Shown: piece after piece, positions 14,498 through 21,646 of the stretch
Layout: the number at the start of each line of letters is the position of its first letter
Numbering within the stretch: position 1 is the stretch's first letter
The notes under the pieces: model-generated
Databases searched by the model: none
Seen by the model: the letters and a program-made list of their open reading frames with translations, nothing else
What the model was told of the DNA's origin: nothing
Translations under genes and position numbers: made by a program
Source: Prochlorococcus sp. AG-402-N17
GTDB taxonomy: Bacteria > Cyanobacteriota > Cyanobacteriia > PCC-6307 > Cyanobiaceae
Length of the DNA stretch: 47,281 nt
Direction of reading: 5' to 3'
NCBI GenBank assembly: GCA_003216455.1
Contig: QCIV01000009.1
Coordinates: 1-47,281, forward strand

Positions 14498-15283
14498 TTA
14501 TTTGCGAAGTTTAGGAATCAAAAGAGATGCAACACAAATAACACTAATTGCAGGCCCAGGGGATAAATTAAAGACTATAGAGAGAATAAATCCCAGAAGT
14601 GAGATACATAATCCAAAAAATGAAGACCTCATCATTGCAATTCTTAAACTAAGAGCCTTATTGAGCCCTAACAGAGTTGGTGTAGAAAGAAGAGCAATGA
14701 CAAGAATTACTCCCACTGCTGACATTGAACTAACAATTACTAATGCCGTTGTAAAACTCAAAGCAAGATTTAATAAAGAAACATTTATACCACTTGCGGA
14801 TGCACCTTCTGGATCCAATCCCACATAAACAACCTTTTCATATCCAAAAGTTATTAAAAGTATAAATACAAAAAAAGCAATTATTGTCCTAAGTAAATCT
14901 CCAAAATTTGCTGTCAATAAATCTCCAAATAATACTGCCTCCAAATCAATCCTTATTCCGAGTAGAGGGATAATAAGTACTCCAAAACCAAGCATTCCAG
15001 CGAGAATAGTATTCATAACTGCTTCATAATTTTCACTTTTTCTATTAGTTAAACTTTCCGCAATTACTGAGCCCAGAAGACCACTTATAACACCACCAAT
15101 TGAGGGGTGAATTCCAAGCGCTAATGCAAGAGCAAGTCCAGGCAACACACAATGAGAGATTAAATTAACTTGTAATAATCTCTTATGAGTGATTAATACA
15201 GTTCCCATAGCTGGGCATAAGATTCCGGAGAATATAGTTATTATTAATGGAACCAGCCACCAGTTGTTATTAATAAAAGACAT
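14498..15283 (-). CDS. znuB: Zinc ABC transporter permease
   Basis: A 261-aa inner-membrane permease of the metal ABC-3 family with about eight hydrophobic segments. Family landmarks: NNWWLVPLIITIFSGILCPA at the start, the LLQVNLISHCVLPGLALALA helix (usual 'D..SH...PG'), NTILAGMLGFGVLI, DPEGASASGINVSLL (EAA-like loop contacting the ATPase) and SMSAVGVILVIALLSTPTLL. With ZnuC and ZnuA it imports Zn2+ (Mn2+ homologues exist). The zur-like regulator gene begins 17 bp from its start on the other strand, and its ATPase partner gene lies beyond that regulator. Confidence 0.92.
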   Translation of the reverse strand: MSFINNNWWLVPLIITIFSGILCPAMGTVLITHKRLLQVNLISHCVLPGLALALALGIHPSIGGVISGLLGSVIAESLTNRKSENYEAVMNTILAGMLGFGVLIIPLLGIRIDLEAVLFGDLLTANFGDLLRTIIAFFVFILLITFGYEKVVYVGLDPEGASASGINVSLLNLALSFTTALVIVSSMSAVGVILVIALLSTPTLLGLNKALSLRIAMMRSSFFGLCISLLGFILSIVFNLSPGPAISVICVASLLIPKLRK

Positions 15284-15300: not shown

Positions 15301-15735
15301 ATGATCAAAAATACGAGACAAAAAAAGATTTTGGAAACAATGGTAACTAAGTCTGACATTACCAAAAGACAAGAACAACTTCTTGAAGAACTTAATAAAT
15401 GCGAGGATGAATTGAGCGGTCAAGAATTGCATAGGCAGTTGATCACAAAAGGCAAATCTATGGGGTTGACCACTGTTTATAGAAATCTGCAAGTCTTGAT
15501 AAAGCATGGATTAATTCGTTCTAGACATCTCCCAACAGGAGAGGTTCTTTACACTCCCGTAGACAGAGATATTCATCATTTGACCTGCGTTCAATGCGGA
15601 GAGACGTCGAAAATGGAAGGTTGTCCTGTTAAAGATATTCATGCCCCTAAAAAAAATCCAAGAAAGTTTCAACTTTTGTTTCATACACTCGAATATTTCG
15701 GCCTTTGCCAAAACTGTTATCAAGCTCAAAATTAA
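15301..15735 (+). CDS. zur: Fur-family zinc uptake regulator
   Basis: A 144-aa Fur-family repressor. The winged helix is visible in TKRQEQLLEELNKCEDELSG and GLTTVYRNLQVLIKHGLIRS (recognition helix, about residues 55-74). The dimerisation domain has DRDIHHLTCVQCGETSKMEG and GLCQNCY. Cys pairs C96/C99 and C136/C139 form the structural Zn site; H92/H93 and C108 are near the sensing site. Its position among znu genes indicates Zur rather than Fur. The ATG at 15340 (residue 14) may be the true start, because 15301 leaves only 17 bp to the divergent znuB start. Confidence 0.9.
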   Translation: MIKNTRQKKILETMVTKSDITKRQEQLLEELNKCEDELSGQELHRQLITKGKSMGLTTVYRNLQVLIKHGLIRSRHLPTGEVLYTPVDRDIHHLTCVQCGETSKMEGCPVKDIHAPKKNPRKFQLLFHTLEYFGLCQNCYQAQN

Positions 15736-15748
15736 GAAGGAACACTTT

Positions 15749-16519
15749 TTAATCACAGAAATTATTTTCCTTTATAGAGCTTATGTTTATCGCATCTAAT
15801 TTATCTTTTATTTGATCAGGACTACCAACTGCTAAAACACTTTTATCAAGAACGATTACTTGATCGTAGTTATTTAGAGACTCGCCCCAATCATGGCTAC
15901 TTACTAGCAAAGAAAATCCCGCATCTGCGAGTTGACGAACAATTTTCAGGAAGTCCTCTTTTGCGGGGGGATCCAATGCCGCACAAGGTTCATCCAGAAG
16001 AAATATTTTTGCAGGGGACATAAGAGTTTTTGCTAATAGAGCTCTTTGTTGCTGTCCTCCTGAAAGAGAATCGAGTCTTCTATTAGCCAAATTAGCAATT
16101 CCTACTCTTTGCATTGTCGCTTCTAATTCACAACATTTATTAATCCAAGAATTAGGATATTCTAGAAGAGCCTTTATTTGAAAGGGGTTATTACTTTTTG
16201 ATTTTGAATACTTTATTTGACCAAGAGATACCAATTTTTCAACTGTAATGGGAAACTTCCAATTCATAGAACTTCTTTGAGGCATTAGTGCCACTAAAGC
16301 TCTAGATCTATACAAATTTTCACCGTCAATTTTTATTTCCCCTTTATCTGGAGTATTTTGTCCTTGCAATAACCTCAAAAGAGTGGATTTACCGGCACCA
16401 TTTGGACCTACTAGCGCTGTTAGAGTTCCAGGTTTAATCTCAACAGATACCTTATTTAAAGCTGGCTTACTTTTTTTTGTGTATGCAAATGTTAAATTTT
16501 CAGCGACTAAAGTAGCCAT
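15749..16519 (-). CDS. znuC: Zinc ABC transporter ATPase
   Basis: A 256-aa ABC ATPase: Walker A GPNGAGKST (residues 38-46), Q-loop region ALMPQRSSMNWKFP, signature LSGGQQQRALLAK, Walker B IFLLDEPCAALD, and the H-loop in LLVSSHDWGE. The Q-loop WKFP wording and the neighbours place it in the metal-ABC (Mnt/Znu) branch. It energises ZnuB. It converges with zur (13 bp gap) and is divergent from znuA, sharing the 139-bp intergenic region with the Zur-like operator. Some Cys-rich sequence (NKCCELEA) lies in the helical subdomain. Confidence 0.92.
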   Translation of the reverse strand: MATLVAENLTFAYTKKSKPALNKVSVEIKPGTLTALVGPNGAGKSTLLRLLQGQNTPDKGEIKIDGENLYRSRALVALMPQRSSMNWKFPITVEKLVSLGQIKYSKSKSNNPFQIKALLEYPNSWINKCCELEATMQRVGIANLANRRLDSLSGGQQQRALLAKTLMSPAKIFLLDEPCAALDPPAKEDFLKIVRQLADAGFSLLVSSHDWGESLNNYDQVIVLDKSVLAVGSPDQIKDKLDAINISSIKENNFCD

Positions 16520-16621
16520 TAATTAATCTTCATGAAAAAAGTCACTTTACAAGCTTACCAATAATATAAGGTGCGTATTATTTTCATAACATTTGATACC
16601 TTATTCTTGCCAGTTGTAATG

Positions 16622-16638
16622 AAAATGATTATCATTTT
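16622..16638. promoter_or_regulatory. Probable Zur operator (palindrome 8-1-8)
   Basis: The bases read AAAATGATTATCATTTT, a perfect inverted repeat of eight bases around a central T, matching the general form of cyanobacterial Zur boxes (TGATAATCATTTTCA-like). It lies 21 bp before the znuA ATG and 103 bp before the znuC start, so it could govern znuA directly and possibly the divergent znuC. I saw no equally good palindrome before znuB/zur or the COG0523 gene. Confidence 0.75.
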
Positions 16639-16658
16639 TAAGTATTTAATAATTTTTT

Positions 16659-18149
16659 ATGTCAATTTTTAAAAGACTTTTATCAAATAAAACATGTTCA
16701 AGTAAGTCAATTATTAAAAATTCCGTAATCGCTGGAACAATTATATTTTCTGGTTTTGGGCAGGATGTAATGGCTAAAGGGAAGTCATACGTAGCAGTAG
16801 AACCACTAGTTTGTGATTTAGTTAAATCAATTGCATTACCATCTGACGAAGTTACATGCTTAGTAGATAGAAAACAGGATGTTCATGATTTAAAGATCAA
16901 TCCAAGACAAGCTCAATTACTAAATAGCGCAGACAAAGTATTCACTCTTGGCAAAGAAATGACTCCAAGTATGAGAAATTGGGAAAGTAAAAAGAATACT
17001 GTTGTTGTAGGTGTTAGTGCAATAGACGTAGATGATCATTCTGATCATGAAGGTGACGATGACCACTCAGACCATGGTGGACATGATGATCATGCGGAAC
17101 ATTCAGCTAAGGTAGATGATGATCATGCTGAGGGTGCTTTCGAATGGGCAGGTAAATTCCAACTTTCTAAGGGTTCATACAAATGGTCATTTGAAAAAGT
17201 CGATGGCGAATATGCAGATCCTGCAATGAAGATGGTGATTCTCAAATCTAATGACATAGAAGGGTCTGAAGATTTAGCCAAAGAATTATTAGGATCTAAA
17301 GACTCAATAAGCAGAAAAAATGATGGTACTTTGATAGCAAGTAATAAAGCTTTTGTTCTTAACTTTGATCAAAGAAAAGAAAGTACTGTTTTTAACGTGG
17401 ATATCAAAGAAGATGGTGAATATATATTTTTTACTGAACACATGCCTTTTGAGTTTGAAGCAACTCAACACTTTTTTAAAGACGTATCAAATAGTGATGT
17501 AGAACCAATAGCACAAGTTCCAGACGAAGGAGAGGGGCATCATCATCATGACCATGGAGGTCTAGATCCACATGTATGGCATGATCCACATAACATCATA
17601 AAAATGGGAGATCTTATAAGCAAAAGTTTAAAGAAAGATATTTCAGTTTTTAATAGAGGTGACAGAAAACTAATTAATGAAAGATTCGAAAAAGCTGATT
17701 CTCTCTTAGAAGGCTTAGATAGTTGGATCGTCGAACAAGTAAGCTCTATTCCTGAGGAAAACAGAGTAATTGTCTCTAAACACAAAGCAATGGAATACTA
17801 TGGGGATGCATTTGGTTTTGAAACCATTAGTTTACTTGACTTTCTTGGAGACTCCTCAAGCTTAAGGCCAGACAACATAAGTTCTACTTTAAAAATGTTA
17901 GATGAAGAGAAAGTTCAGTCAATATTTCCTGAACAAATTCCAGCATCTAAGTTATTAAGGAACTTAAGTAGACAAAGTTCAGTTCCTTTAGCTTCTAATC
18001 AAATATTCGTTGATGGATTAATGATGGATGGTAATACGGTTTCAGTAGCCGTACACAACACTTGTACAATTGTTGATTCATTAGGTGGAAGCTGTGATAA
18101 AGAATCTGGCTCCAATCTTGAGTCTGAATGGTACAAACTTTCAGATTAA
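16659..18149 (+). CDS. znuA: Zinc ABC transporter solute-binding protein with inserted domain
   Basis: A periplasmic Zn-binding protein of 496 aa, far longer than the usual about 300. The N-terminus has a signal-like hydrophobic stretch ending ...FSGFGQDVMA. The TroA fold begins VAVEPLVCDLVKSI. The metal ligands expected are H76 (KQDVHDLKINP), the DPHVWHDPHN motif (303-312), the KHKAMEYYG His, and a late Asp. The classical His-rich loop is expanded to 124-156 (repeated DHSDH/HDDH), then residues 160-288 form an extra domain similar to residues 220-340 of the neighbouring COG0523 protein, then HHHHDHGG. Regulated by the adjacent Zur box. Confidence 0.93.
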   Translation: MSIFKRLLSNKTCSSKSIIKNSVIAGTIIFSGFGQDVMAKGKSYVAVEPLVCDLVKSIALPSDEVTCLVDRKQDVHDLKINPRQAQLLNSADKVFTLGKEMTPSMRNWESKKNTVVVGVSAIDVDDHSDHEGDDDHSDHGGHDDHAEHSAKVDDDHAEGAFEWAGKFQLSKGSYKWSFEKVDGEYADPAMKMVILKSNDIEGSEDLAKELLGSKDSISRKNDGTLIASNKAFVLNFDQRKESTVFNVDIKEDGEYIFFTEHMPFEFEATQHFFKDVSNSDVEPIAQVPDEGEGHHHHDHGGLDPHVWHDPHNIIKMGDLISKSLKKDISVFNRGDRKLINERFEKADSLLEGLDSWIVEQVSSIPEENRVIVSKHKAMEYYGDAFGFETISLLDFLGDSSSLRPDNISSTLKMLDEEKVQSIFPEQIPASKLLRNLSRQSSVPLASNQIFVDGLMMDGNTVSVAVHNTCTIVDSLGGSCDKESGSNLESEWYKLSD

Positions 18150-18226
18150 ATTTTTCTAATAAAAACGGTTTTCATTTCTTATTATTACTATTATTAAATT
18201 ATTGTTTATTTGGTAAAAATCATTAA

Positions 18227-19576
18227 ATGAGCATCAAAGATAAAGTTCCAGTTACTATTCTCACTGGATTTTTAGGTTCAGGGAAAACTACTTTACTTAA
18301 TAGAATATTAAGTGAAGAGCACGGGAAAAGAATCGCAGTAATTGAGAATGAATACGGAGAAGTAGGGATAGATCAAGGGCTTGTAATTAATGCCGATGAA
18401 GAAGTGTTTGAGATGTCAAACGGGTGCATTTGTTGTACTGTTCGCGGTGATTTAATAAGAGTCCTTGGCAACCTTATGAAAAGAAGAGATAAGTTTGACT
18501 ATGTTTTAGTAGAAACGACCGGATTAGCAGATCCTGGGCCAGTCGCTCAGACATTTTTCATGGATGAAGAAATTAGTTCTGAATTTACTCTTGATGGAAT
18601 TGTAACTTTAGTTGATGCTGCTCATATTGATCAGCAGCTAGGAAGAAGTGATGAAAGTTCAGAACAAGTTGCATTCGCAGATGTTCTTGTCCTTAATAAA
18701 ACTGATTTAGTCTCTGATGATGCAATAGATACCCTTGAATCAAGATTGAGAGATATGAATCGAATGACTCGAATTATCAGAGCCGAGAATGCCAAAGTAC
18801 CAATTGAAACAGTCTTAAATCTAAGTGCATTTGATCTCGATCAGATCCTTAAACGCAGACCAACATTTCTTGAACCAGAATATCCTTTTGAATGGACAGG
18901 TGTTTACGATCTAGATGCAGGTAAATATGAATTAATGCTAGAAGAAGGACCCGATCCAGAAATGTCCCTAGTAGCTATCGCTAACCAAGGTGAGAGTGAA
19001 GAGGAACTTAAAGATGGTGCTGAATCCTCTGTAAGACTTTATGCAGAAAAAGCTAATACTTTAGAGCCTGGAAATACTATCCAATATGGAGAACATATAA
19101 ATCTCAAATTGGAGGATAAAGGAAATAAATCCTTCATCCTGAACATAGAAAAGCCAACAAAAATAGGTTTATTTACACAGCACACTGCTGAAGAATTTAA
19201 TATGAAAATCATTAAAAGTGACGAAAATAAAGAGATTCCATTTAATACTGAAAGGTTCTGGCAAGCAGAGCATGAACATGATGATGAGGTAGGCTCAATT
19301 GCTATAGAGCGTTTTGGAGATGTTGACCCAGAAAAACTAAATACTTGGATGGGAAGGCTTCTTTCAGAAAAAGGGGTGGATATATTCAGAACTAAAGGGT
19401 TCATAAGTTACTCAGGCAACCCAAGGCGAATAGTTTTCCAGGGAGTACACATGTTATTTACGGCACAACCTGATAAAGAATGGGGTAACGAACCTCGTAG
19501 AAATCAACTTGTTTTTATCGGTAGAAATCTAAATAAGAAAGAGATGCAAGAAGGCTTTGATAAATGCCTGATATAG
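18227..19576 (+). CDS. COG0523/CobW-like GTPase, putative zinc metallochaperone
   Basis: A cytoplasmic G3E GTPase of 449 aa. Walker A GFLGSGKTT (14-22), the metal-binding motif GCICC (66-70), ETTGLADP (96-103) and the guanine-specificity NKTD (157-160) are all visible. The C-terminal CobW_C domain (about 355-440) is preceded by HEHDDE. Between the GTPase and CobW_C lies an additional segment (about 220-340: FEWTGVYDLDAGKYELMLEE ... IGLFTQHTAEEF) also found in ZnuA next door. Location after znuA implies a Zn-responsive allocation role rather than cobalamin synthesis. It overlaps the WD40 gene by 13 bp. Confidence 0.9.
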   Translation: MSIKDKVPVTILTGFLGSGKTTLLNRILSEEHGKRIAVIENEYGEVGIDQGLVINADEEVFEMSNGCICCTVRGDLIRVLGNLMKRRDKFDYVLVETTGLADPGPVAQTFFMDEEISSEFTLDGIVTLVDAAHIDQQLGRSDESSEQVAFADVLVLNKTDLVSDDAIDTLESRLRDMNRMTRIIRAENAKVPIETVLNLSAFDLDQILKRRPTFLEPEYPFEWTGVYDLDAGKYELMLEEGPDPEMSLVAIANQGESEEELKDGAESSVRLYAEKANTLEPGNTIQYGEHINLKLEDKGNKSFILNIEKPTKIGLFTQHTAEEFNMKIIKSDENKEIPFNTERFWQAEHEHDDEVGSIAIERFGDVDPEKLNTWMGRLLSEKGVDIFRTKGFISYSGNPRRIVFQGVHMLFTAQPDKEWGNEPRRNQLVFIGRNLNKKEMQEGFDKCLI

Positions 19577-20637
19577 AACCATTTAGCCCAAGAGGCATGT
19601 TCCACGACGGATGGACAGCTGAAGTTAGTGATTATGCCATAGCATGTGGCTGGGCTCTTAAAGGGAAACAATTTATTGTTGGCGACGTGGCAGGTGGTAT
19701 TTTTGCATTCGAAGGAGATACTGGAAAAATTATTTGGAAAAAAGAAAATACTCACTCTGGTGGTCTACTAGCAATGGCAATTCATCCAGAGGGTGAAATT
19801 TTTGCAACATCAGGTCAGGATGGAAATGTTCAAATTTGTAATTGCCATGAAGGTAAAGTTATTAAAACACTTGATCTTGGCAATGGTTGGGTAGAACACC
19901 TCAAGTGGTCTAATGACGGTTTATTTCTAGCGATAGCTTCCTCAAAAAAAGTATATGTTTTTAATGAAATTGGTGAAGAGAAATGGATCTCAGAAGATCA
20001 TCCAACCACAGTAAGTGCAATAACATGGTCAAATAAAAATGAGCTAGCTACTGCTTGCTATGGAAGAGTGACATTCTTTGACATAGTTAATAATAAAACG
20101 AATCAAAAACTCGAATGGCAAGGATCATTGGTATCTATGGAATTAAGTCCTGATGGAGATATAGTTGCCTGCGGTAGTCAAGACAATTCAGTACATTTTT
20201 GGAGAAGATCAACAGGACTGGATGCAGAGATGACGGGATACCCTGGCAAACCAAGTCACCTTTCTTTTGATGACAGCGGAAAATTATTAGCAACTAGCGG
20301 TAGCGAAAGAATAACAGTATGGAGCTTTATAGGAAATGGTCCAGAGGGGACTATGCCAGGAGAGCTATGTCACCATACAGAACCCATTTCGAGCCTAGCC
20401 TTTTCAAATAAAGGTATGCTTGTAGCCTCAGGATCTAGAGATGGTTCTGTTGTCGCAAGTTTCCTAAAAAAAGACGGCAATGGAGATCCTGTTGGGGCTG
20501 CATTCGCGGGAGATTTAGTAGGGGCAATATCCTGGAGACCTGATGATTGTGCACTTGCAGCAGTTAATGCAAAAGGTGTTGTAAATGTATGGAAATTTAA
20601 AGTTCGTACTAACCTTTTTTCTAAGGGGTTTAAGTAA
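19564..20637 (+). CDS. WD40-repeat protein linked to zinc genes
   Basis: A 357-aa beta-propeller. Repeats are visible through recurring 'S.D....A..S.D..V..W' units: HPEGEIFATSGQDGNVQICN, SPDGDIVACGSQDNSVHFWR, DDSGKLLATSGSERITVWSF and NKGMLVASGSRDGSVVASF, with about seven blades in all. No signal peptide, so it is cytoplasmic and probably a protein-binding scaffold. The start lies inside the COG0523 gene (13-bp overlap), indicating translational coupling and a shared role in zinc handling, possibly holding the metallochaperone and a client. That role is inference from context. Confidence 0.88.
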   Translation: MPDIEPFSPRGMFHDGWTAEVSDYAIACGWALKGKQFIVGDVAGGIFAFEGDTGKIIWKKENTHSGGLLAMAIHPEGEIFATSGQDGNVQICNCHEGKVIKTLDLGNGWVEHLKWSNDGLFLAIASSKKVYVFNEIGEEKWISEDHPTTVSAITWSNKNELATACYGRVTFFDIVNNKTNQKLEWQGSLVSMELSPDGDIVACGSQDNSVHFWRRSTGLDAEMTGYPGKPSHLSFDDSGKLLATSGSERITVWSFIGNGPEGTMPGELCHHTEPISSLAFSNKGMLVASGSRDGSVVASFLKKDGNGDPVGAAFAGDLVGAISWRPDDCALAAVNAKGVVNVWKFKVRTNLFSKGFK

Positions 20638-21370: not shown

Positions 21371-21646
21371 ATGGTTCGATATTATTGCCCATATTGTAAT
21401 CCTAAATATCAATTTCAGAAACAATCCTCAAAAGGTAATTTGATTTGTGGATTGTGCGGAGAGGATCTTGTAAAAAAACCATTTATTAGGTTGAACCAGA
21501 TAATCGCTTTAATTGCTGCGTCATCATTACTTCTACCTTTAATATATACTTTTATTTTTTTAATTAAAAATCAAATAAATCCTCCTAATAAAAACTATCA
21601 AGCAAAAAGTACTTTAATGAAAATTATCAAAGAAAGAATTTCATAA
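21371..21646 (+). CDS. Zinc-ribbon membrane protein, 91 aa
   Basis: An N-terminal zinc ribbon (YYCPYCNPKYQFQK then GNLICGLCGEDLVKKP): two CxxC pairs about 22 residues apart. This is followed by one membrane helix (IIALIAASSLLLPLIYTFIF, about residues 49-70) and a Lys/Asn-rich tail. A cytoplasmic metal-binding knuckle tethered to the membrane fits a small regulatory or assembly protein. Family not recognised. Confidence 0.7.
   Translation: MVRYYCPYCNPKYQFQKQSSKGNLICGLCGEDLVKKPFIRLNQIIALIAASSLLLPLIYTFIFLIKNQINPPNKNYQAKSTLMKIIKERIS

What the first reader, a model, noticed from the sequence alone, without database searches (positions are those of the whole stretch)
17136..19260. One inserted domain shared by periplasmic ZnuA and the cytoplasmic COG0523 GTPase next to it
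ZnuA residues about 160-290 and COG0523 residues about 220-345 align by eye with the same ordered anchors: FEW-x-G, L-x(2)-G-x-Y, D-P-x-M-x(2)-V, L-N, a short strand then F-T-x-H-x(3)-E-F, and finally a H-x-H-D-rich stretch. Both proteins are otherwise unrelated and lie in different compartments, but are encoded side by side under a probable Zur operator. ZnuA is about 190 residues longer than usual because of it. The conserved H and E in FTxHxxxEF look like metal ligands. This suggests a mobile Zn-sensing or Zn-handover module used on both sides of the membrane. I know of no name for it.
Basis: partly seen in the sequence, partly recalled or inferred. Interest (0 to 1): 0.8.

Follow-up and report, generated by a model that had tools for sequence, protein, structure and literature searches.

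The report
Shared metal-handling domain on both membrane sides
The same unnamed protein domain really is built into two otherwise unrelated metal-handling proteins of an ocean cyanobacterium, and it recurs in other proteins of very distant microbes, which makes it a likely but untested metal-binding module.

Summary
ZnuA residues 161-293 and COG0523 GTPase residues 221-352 are homologous: profile-profile E 1.7e-9 within close relatives, 6e-30 with wider sets, score 169 against at most 19.7 in 100 permuted controls. No Pfam or NCBIfam model covers the segment. The ~135-residue domain also occurs in COG0523 proteins of other cyanobacteria and Proteobacteria, in ZnuA-like proteins and stand-alone lipoproteins of haloarchaea (one beside a urease operon), and inside a membrane protein of Alicyclobacillus. 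H and E of the FTxHxxxEF core are invariant in 26 of 26 non-redundant copies. In ZnuA it sits inside the His-rich loop. Within the genus, ZnuA holds 0, 1 or 2 copies. A WD40 gene follows the domain-COG0523 gene in 18 of 19 loci examined, and a perfect Zur box precedes znuA. Predicted fold: beta-sandwich, low confidence. Most likely a folded metal-capture or relay module; metal binding is inferred, not shown. The tree suggests, without proving, that the neighbouring copies are no local duplication.

The parts
14498..15283 (-). znuB-type permease gene
   Evidence: ORF; name inferred from sequence and gene order
15301..15735 (+). Fur-family regulator, probable zur
   Evidence: ORF; identity inferred from sequence and context
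15749..16519 (-). znuC-type ATPase gene
   Evidence: ORF; name inferred from sequence and gene order
16620..16640 (.). Zur box: perfect 8-1-8 palindrome at 16622-16638
   Evidence: 0 mismatches to the RegPrecise consensus quoted in PMC9337993; a sigma-70-like -10 overlaps it
16659..18149 (+). znuA, 496 aa, periplasmic (by inference) metal-binding protein with insert
   Evidence: Pfam ZnuA PF01297 2e-41 in two stretches
17031..17138 (+). Asp-His-rich segment before the domain in ZnuA
17139..17537 (+). FEW domain in ZnuA, residues 161-293
17430..17456 (+). core FTEHMPFEF in ZnuA (H261, E265)
17538..17558 (+). His-rich end of the ZnuA loop (HHHHDHG)
18227..19576 (+). COG0523 (CobW-type) GTPase, 449 aa, with insert
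   Evidence: Pfam cobW PF02492 4.3e-61 (8-184) and CobW_C PF07683 9.8e-25 (356-448); Walker A and CICC
18887..19282 (+). FEW domain in COG0523, residues 221-352, between G domain and CobW_C
19172..19198 (+). core FTQHTAEEF in COG0523 (H319, E323)
19564..20637 (+). WD40 beta-propeller gene, overlaps the GTPase gene by 13 bases
   Evidence: neighbour in 18 of 19 loci examined

Best explanation
ZnuA and the COG0523 GTPase carry homologous copies of one undescribed domain of about 135 residues, probably a beta-sandwich. In ZnuA it is inserted in the flexible His-rich loop outside the cytoplasm; in the GTPase it lies between the G domain and CobW_C, where haloarchaeal COG0523 neighbours without the domain have a His-rich stretch by eye. 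Shown: homology, insertion sites, distribution, invariant E, D, H and E, adjoining HxH in most copies, Zur box. Inferred: the domain binds a first-row metal (Zn, possibly Co or Ni) through some of these residues, concentrates it near the host protein's high-affinity site and passes it on, as a folded companion of the His-rich loop.
For: Homology. Hosts and neighbours: ZnuA-like proteins, COG0523 GTPases, His-rich lipoproteins one of which follows ureC-ureF, and a membrane protein among annotated metal regulators and transporters. H and E of the core and the following F invariant in 26 of 26 non-redundant copies, the E of FEW in 25 of 25 with letters there, D in 25 of 26, both His of the adjoining HxH in 23 of 26; 209 of 209 distinct sequences that reach the core keep HxxxEF (the search profile favours such hits). 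Insertion in the His-rich loop of ZnuA; His-rich stretch in domain-less haloarchaeal COG0523. Two-copy ZnuA has 9-10 loop His against 14-23 without the domain. Zur-box-like sites: within 3 mismatches before 8 of 8 znuA genes tested (one of them domain-less); with 2 mismatches before the domain-COG0523 in 3 of 16, one of these far from znuA; with 2 before the NicO-COG0523-WD40 set of the Gloeobacter-type genome. Four full-length COG0523 paralogues in the loci scanned lack the domain.
Against: No metal binding has been measured. Two of the three annotated stand-alone lipoprotein genes have no evident metal gene among their annotated neighbours. One-copy ZnuA keeps as many loop His (median 20, range 7-29, n=98) as domain-less ZnuA (median 18.5, n=6), so one copy adds to the loop and does not replace it; the two-copy proteins are close relatives, so their loss may be one event. 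The models are poor (mean pLDDT 61 and 67), so clustering of E, D, H and E could not be tested. Only one His is invariant inside the domain. Before 11 of 16 domain-COG0523 genes no Zur-like site within 4 mismatches was found; five of these follow znuA and one follows NicO, but five (two of them proteobacterial, where the consensus may differ) have neither.
Confidence: 0.58

Rival explanations
1. The domain is a docking module without its own metal site: it holds a partner protein (for COG0523 perhaps the WD40 protein; for ZnuA a partner at the membrane).
For: WD40 gene directly after the domain-COG0523 in 18 of 19 loci examined, while none of four full-length domain-less COG0523 paralogues in those loci has one directly beside it. 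Predicted beta-sandwich, a fold often used for binding.
Against: The haloarchaeal ZnuA-type, lipoprotein and Alicyclobacillus copies have no WD40 gene among annotated neighbours; invariant His and acidic residues and the adjoining HxH are unexplained.
Confidence: 0.27
2. The domain is a metal-responsive brake: it binds metal when plentiful and blocks the ZnuA site or the GTPase, so it senses rather than delivers.
For: The His-rich loop of ZnuA has been proposed as regulatory (title of Wei et al. 2007 in the reference list of PMC8786288).
Against: Zur already represses this kind of operon when zinc is plentiful (PMC9337993 passages); a stand-alone lipoprotein has nothing to brake.
Confidence: 0.1
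3. The two neighbouring copies arose by recent copying within this operon (a rival on origin, not on function).
For: They are adjacent genes; the AU test does not reject a joint clade (p 0.116).
Against: All 14 COG0523-type domains of the tree form one clade (95/96.5) and cyanobacterial ZnuA domains fall with haloarchaeal extracytoplasmic ones (95/94); the tree holding the two neighbours together is 12 log units worse, though long branches are present.
Confidence: 0.15
4. Chance or convergent similarity of two unrelated inserts.
For: Only about 23-30% identity between ZnuA-type and COG0523-type copies of the picocyanobacteria.
Against: Profile score 169 against at most 19.7 in 100 permuted controls; significant single-sequence hits across phyla.
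Confidence: 0.01

Closest known systems
His-rich loop of ZnuA-type binding proteins
   Same: Same place in the protein; said to raise zinc near the cleft (PMC8786288 section 11)
   Different: Loop is low-complexity; here a conserved, probably folded domain is added to it
COG0523 GTPases with His-stretches, and subfamily 5 of Haas et al. 2009
   Same: GTPase with CICC motif; subfamily 5 clusters with WD40 and znuABC genes and partly with Zur sites (passages of PMC2770081)
   Different: A 130-residue domain rather than a His stretch; the passages seen do not mention such a domain; membership of subfamily 5 was not tested
ZepA, zinc-handling exoprotein of Anabaena
   Same: Zur-linked extracellular zinc protein with a beta-sandwich domain, often near ZnuA or COG0523 genes (passages and section 12 of PMC10957091)
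   Different: Its zinc motif H-X2-9-H-F/Y-H occurs in 0 of 26 domain copies; not found by its authors in Archaea
AztD, zinc chaperone for AztC
   Same: Extra protein of a zinc system (abstract in listing); that it is a beta-propeller is recalled
   Different: AztD serves a binding protein outside the cytoplasm; here the WD40 gene goes with the cytoplasmic GTPase
Collagenase collagen-binding / pre-peptidase C-terminal and GOLD domains
   Same: Among the best Foldseek and VIA-align neighbours of the ZnuA-domain model
   Different: Weak (best E 0.05; Z 6.0 or less), no sequence match; may only be a common arrangement

Membership tests
ZnuA (PF01297) | ZnuA Pfam profile | tested here: met
   PF01297 2e-41, two stretches, best 263-471
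ZnuA (PF01297) | high-affinity zinc transport | not testable with these tools
   no assay; PMC8786288 notes unresolved metal specificity of picocyanobacterial proteins
COG0523 G3E GTPase | cobW nucleotide-binding domain, Walker A, CxCC, CobW_C | tested here: met
Zur regulon | Zur box overlapping the promoter | tested here: met
   binding not assayed
any Pfam-A family, for the insert | match of the isolated domain | tested here: not met
   ZnuA copy none; COG0523 copy one hit at E 0.26 below its cutoff; two stand-alone homologues none
any NCBIfam family, for the insert | match covering the domain | tested here: not met
   best stretches of whole-protein hits lie outside the domain or overlap its edge only; stand-alone homologues none
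ZepA | H-X2-9-H-F/Y-H zinc motif | tested here: not met
   0 of 26 non-redundant copies
pre-peptidase C-terminal domain | Pfam profile match | tested here: not met
   not among matches at E up to 5; filters drop most above 0.1
pre-peptidase C-terminal domain | same fold | tested here: inconclusive
   low-confidence model, Z 5.7 to 1nqj_A over 79 residues, rmsd 3.2; not among the 50 rows listed for the COG0523-domain model

The most novel reading that the evidence does not exclude
A widespread, folded metal-relay domain, present in cyanobacteria, Proteobacteria, Firmicutes and haloarchaea, has been inserted into importer proteins, GTPase chaperones and a membrane protein, and also works alone at the cell surface, so that the same module picks up the metal outside and loads it inside. 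In Prochlorococcus its copy number in ZnuA (0, 1 or 2) tunes metal scavenging to the ocean's scarcity.
Probability: 0.43. Interest if true: 0.85.

Novelty: new variant of a known kind. Interest (0 to 1): 0.67.

Why it matters
It gives a testable handle on how cells keep scarce metals bound on the way from uptake to enzymes, a step usually credited to flexible His loops. It is present in Prochlorococcus and its relatives, abundant ocean phototrophs that live with very little zinc and cobalt, and it would add a family to Pfam-type libraries and flag some unnamed lipoproteins and membrane proteins as possible metal handlers.

Tried and rejected
Idea that diatom ZCRP-B is the same domain: dropped after passages of PMC9010474, which describe it as a NikA homologue. 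Idea that ZepA is a relative: its zinc motif is absent. Phage records: no match. Viral contigs: 30 stretches matched a pattern, none confirmed. Solved structures by sequence: best E 0.37 and 0.43, no relative. Local duplication: disfavoured but not rejected. The 873-aa ZnuA with two domains in G115 contains a run of unknown residues and repeats itself: a scaffold gap artefact. The Alicyclobacillus membrane protein could not be assigned to a transporter family (whole protein DUF2207_C at E 0.23; DsbD_2 at 0.063 for one half, nothing for the other). The two structure models share one mix of both types in their alignments, so their agreement in order of elements is not independent evidence; no coordinates were at hand to test whether the conserved residues meet. 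The one scan of genome contigs found 271 relatives and returned the best 80, all Prochlorococcus or uncultured Synechococcaceae, so the breadth outside cyanobacteria rests on plasmid records alone. A genome search centred on a plasmid locus was not accepted.

Full report
What is there. The window is Prochlorococcus DNA by its matches. It holds znuB, a Fur-family regulator, znuC, then znuA (16659-18149), a COG0523 GTPase (18227-19576) and a WD40 gene (19564-20637). Pfam finds ZnuA in two stretches, and cobW (8-184) plus CobW_C (356-448) in the GTPase; the segment between them and the ZnuA middle have no family in Pfam or NCBIfam.

Is the similarity real. Whole-protein BLASTP of the pair gives E 1e-4 over 113 residues. 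Profiles of 7 ZnuA-type and 6 COG0523-type domains match at E 1.7e-9. With non-redundant sets the extracytoplasmic copies (10) and COG0523 copies (14) match at E 6.1e-30, score 169; 100 column permutations gave at most 19.7. Single sequences connect as well: the domain of a COG0523 protein from a 4,659,019-base cyanobacterial chromosome (the size I recall for Gloeobacter violaceus) hits a haloarchaeal ZnuA-like protein at 7e-13 in the plasmid collection.

Where else it occurs. In a draw of 300 genomes of the window's family (80% complete or more, the window's own included) 105 have it; in a draw of 386 from the phylum, 31, of which 27 belong to the window's family. On plasmids it was found in haloarchaeal ZnuA-like proteins, in stand-alone haloarchaeal lipoproteins with His-rich ends, in COG0523 proteins of Paraburkholderia and Pantoea, and inside a 303-residue membrane protein of Alicyclobacillus that sits among metal regulators and transporters. 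One lipoprotein gene follows a urease operon; two others have no evident metal gene beside them. The COG0523 proteins beside the domain-bearing binding protein of Halorubrum and Haloarcula do not have the domain, nor do four full-length COG0523 paralogues in the cyanobacterial and Pantoea loci scanned. No match in phage records and no confirmed one in viral contigs.

Anatomy. Among 26 copies below 80% identity (one from a broken gene), H, E and F of the HxxxEF core are invariant, the E of FEW is in all 25 that have the position, D of DPxM in 25, and both His of the adjoining HxH in 23. Of 228 distinct sequences 209 have HxxxEF; the other 19 are cut before it. The search profile itself favours such hits. 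The ZnuA copy lies inside the Asp-His loop, the COG0523 copy between the two known domains. Two AlphaFold models, of the ZnuA and of the COG0523 copy, give the same order of elements, three strands, a helical part, then strands, at mean pLDDT 61 and 67; both used an alignment that mixes the two types, so this is a consistency check only. Foldseek neighbours are mostly generic beta-sandwich or jelly-roll chains with E 0.018 or worse.

Copy number. Of 61 genomes of the genus (60 at least 95% complete, plus the window's own), 59 have this ZnuA, in 60 frames (G232 has two). Six frames of 371-411 aa lack the domain and five of 615-624 aa have two copies, checked by sequence; the other 49 are 447-526 aa, the size of one copy, confirmed by sequence for the shortest and for the most divergent one. 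Among distinct proteins in hand, loop His outside the domain number 14-23 with no copy (n=6), 7-29 with one (n=98, median 20) and 9-10 with two (n=6). So one copy adds to the loop, and only the two-copy form has lost the Asp-His repeats; these are close relatives and may be one event.

Operon and regulation. A perfect 8-1-8 palindrome at 16622-16638 fits the cyanobacterial Zur consensus quoted in PMC9337993 (passages seen) with no mismatch and overlaps a -10-like hexamer. That paper reports that in Synechococcus WH8102 znuC, znuA and the two next genes, described as of unknown function, respond to Zur and zinc; that those two are the COG0523 and WD40 genes is my inference from gene order. The domain-COG0523 gene is followed by WD40 in 18 of 19 loci: the window and 17 of 18 fetched ones, in one of them in broken frames; 11 of the 19 are from the window's family. 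In the Gloeobacter-type genome a NicO permease (PF03824, 1.6e-13) precedes it, and a Zur-like site with 2 mismatches precedes the permease. Sites within 3 mismatches lie before 8 of 8 znuA genes tested. Before the domain-COG0523 gene, 3 of 16 have a site with 2 mismatches (L188, L191, L199), one with 3, one with 4, and 11 none; of these 11, five follow znuA, one follows NicO and five (L178, L179, L184, L185, L196) have neither. The control there was 200 single-base shuffles per stretch.

History. A tree of 25 copies puts all 14 COG0523-type domains together (95/96.5) and the cyanobacterial ZnuA copies with haloarchaeal extracytoplasmic ones (95/94). Holding the picocyanobacterial ZnuA and COG0523 copies together costs 12 log units but is not rejected (p-AU 0.116), and long branches are present. 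Three changes of host are needed, the least possible for four host types. The likeliest reading is that two old lineages of the domain meet in this operon.

How it works. My best account is a metal-capture and relay domain beside the host's main site, Zn most likely here, Co or Ni possible elsewhere. The homology, positions, conserved residues and Zur box are shown; metal binding, which residues bind, and transfer are inferred. The chief rival is a protein-docking role. PMC8786288 (section 11 read) notes that metal specificity of picocyanobacterial ZnuA-like proteins is unsettled; I could not place this protein in its clusters.

Print. Paper searches, and the passages or sections seen, gave no description of the domain. 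Barnett et al. 2012 on zinc genes of marine cyanobacteria was not held, so an earlier mention there cannot be excluded; eukaryotes were not searched.

Noticed in passing
L189 and L190 (genome G232): Two ZnuA genes: a domain-less one at the znuB-zur-znuC locus and a domain-bearing one elsewhere with its own perfect Zur box and no znuB, znuC or zur hit in the 10-kb stretch.
   Followed up: partly
L121 8227-8925: A NicO-family nickel/cobalt permease gene directly precedes the domain-COG0523 and WD40 genes in the Gloeobacter-type genome.
   Followed up: partly
L147 and L181 (Haloarcula halophila plasmid): The same metal operon occurs twice; at the record end the binding-protein frame is interrupted, at 63875-65464 it is intact.
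   Followed up: no
L180 7000-8700 (Pantoea soli plasmid): Domain-COG0523 and WD40 genes are in broken frames, near a nickel transporter, a transcriptional repressor and zigA.
   Followed up: no
L187 and L188 (genome G104): A short COG0523-like frame lies next to domain-bearing znuA, while the full domain-COG0523 and WD40 pair lies about 0.87 Mb away with its own Zur-like site.
   Followed up: no
L186 5727-8345: 873-residue ZnuA with two domains contains a run of unknown residues and repeats itself: an assembly gap artefact.
   Followed up: yes
L194 (genome G377): The domain-COG0523 frame on a 3.8-kb contig runs, by eye, into unrelated sequence and has no WD40 hit, the only such exception among 19 loci.
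   Followed up: partly
window 21371-21646: Small protein with two CxxC pairs and a likely membrane segment downstream of the WD40 gene.
   Followed up: no
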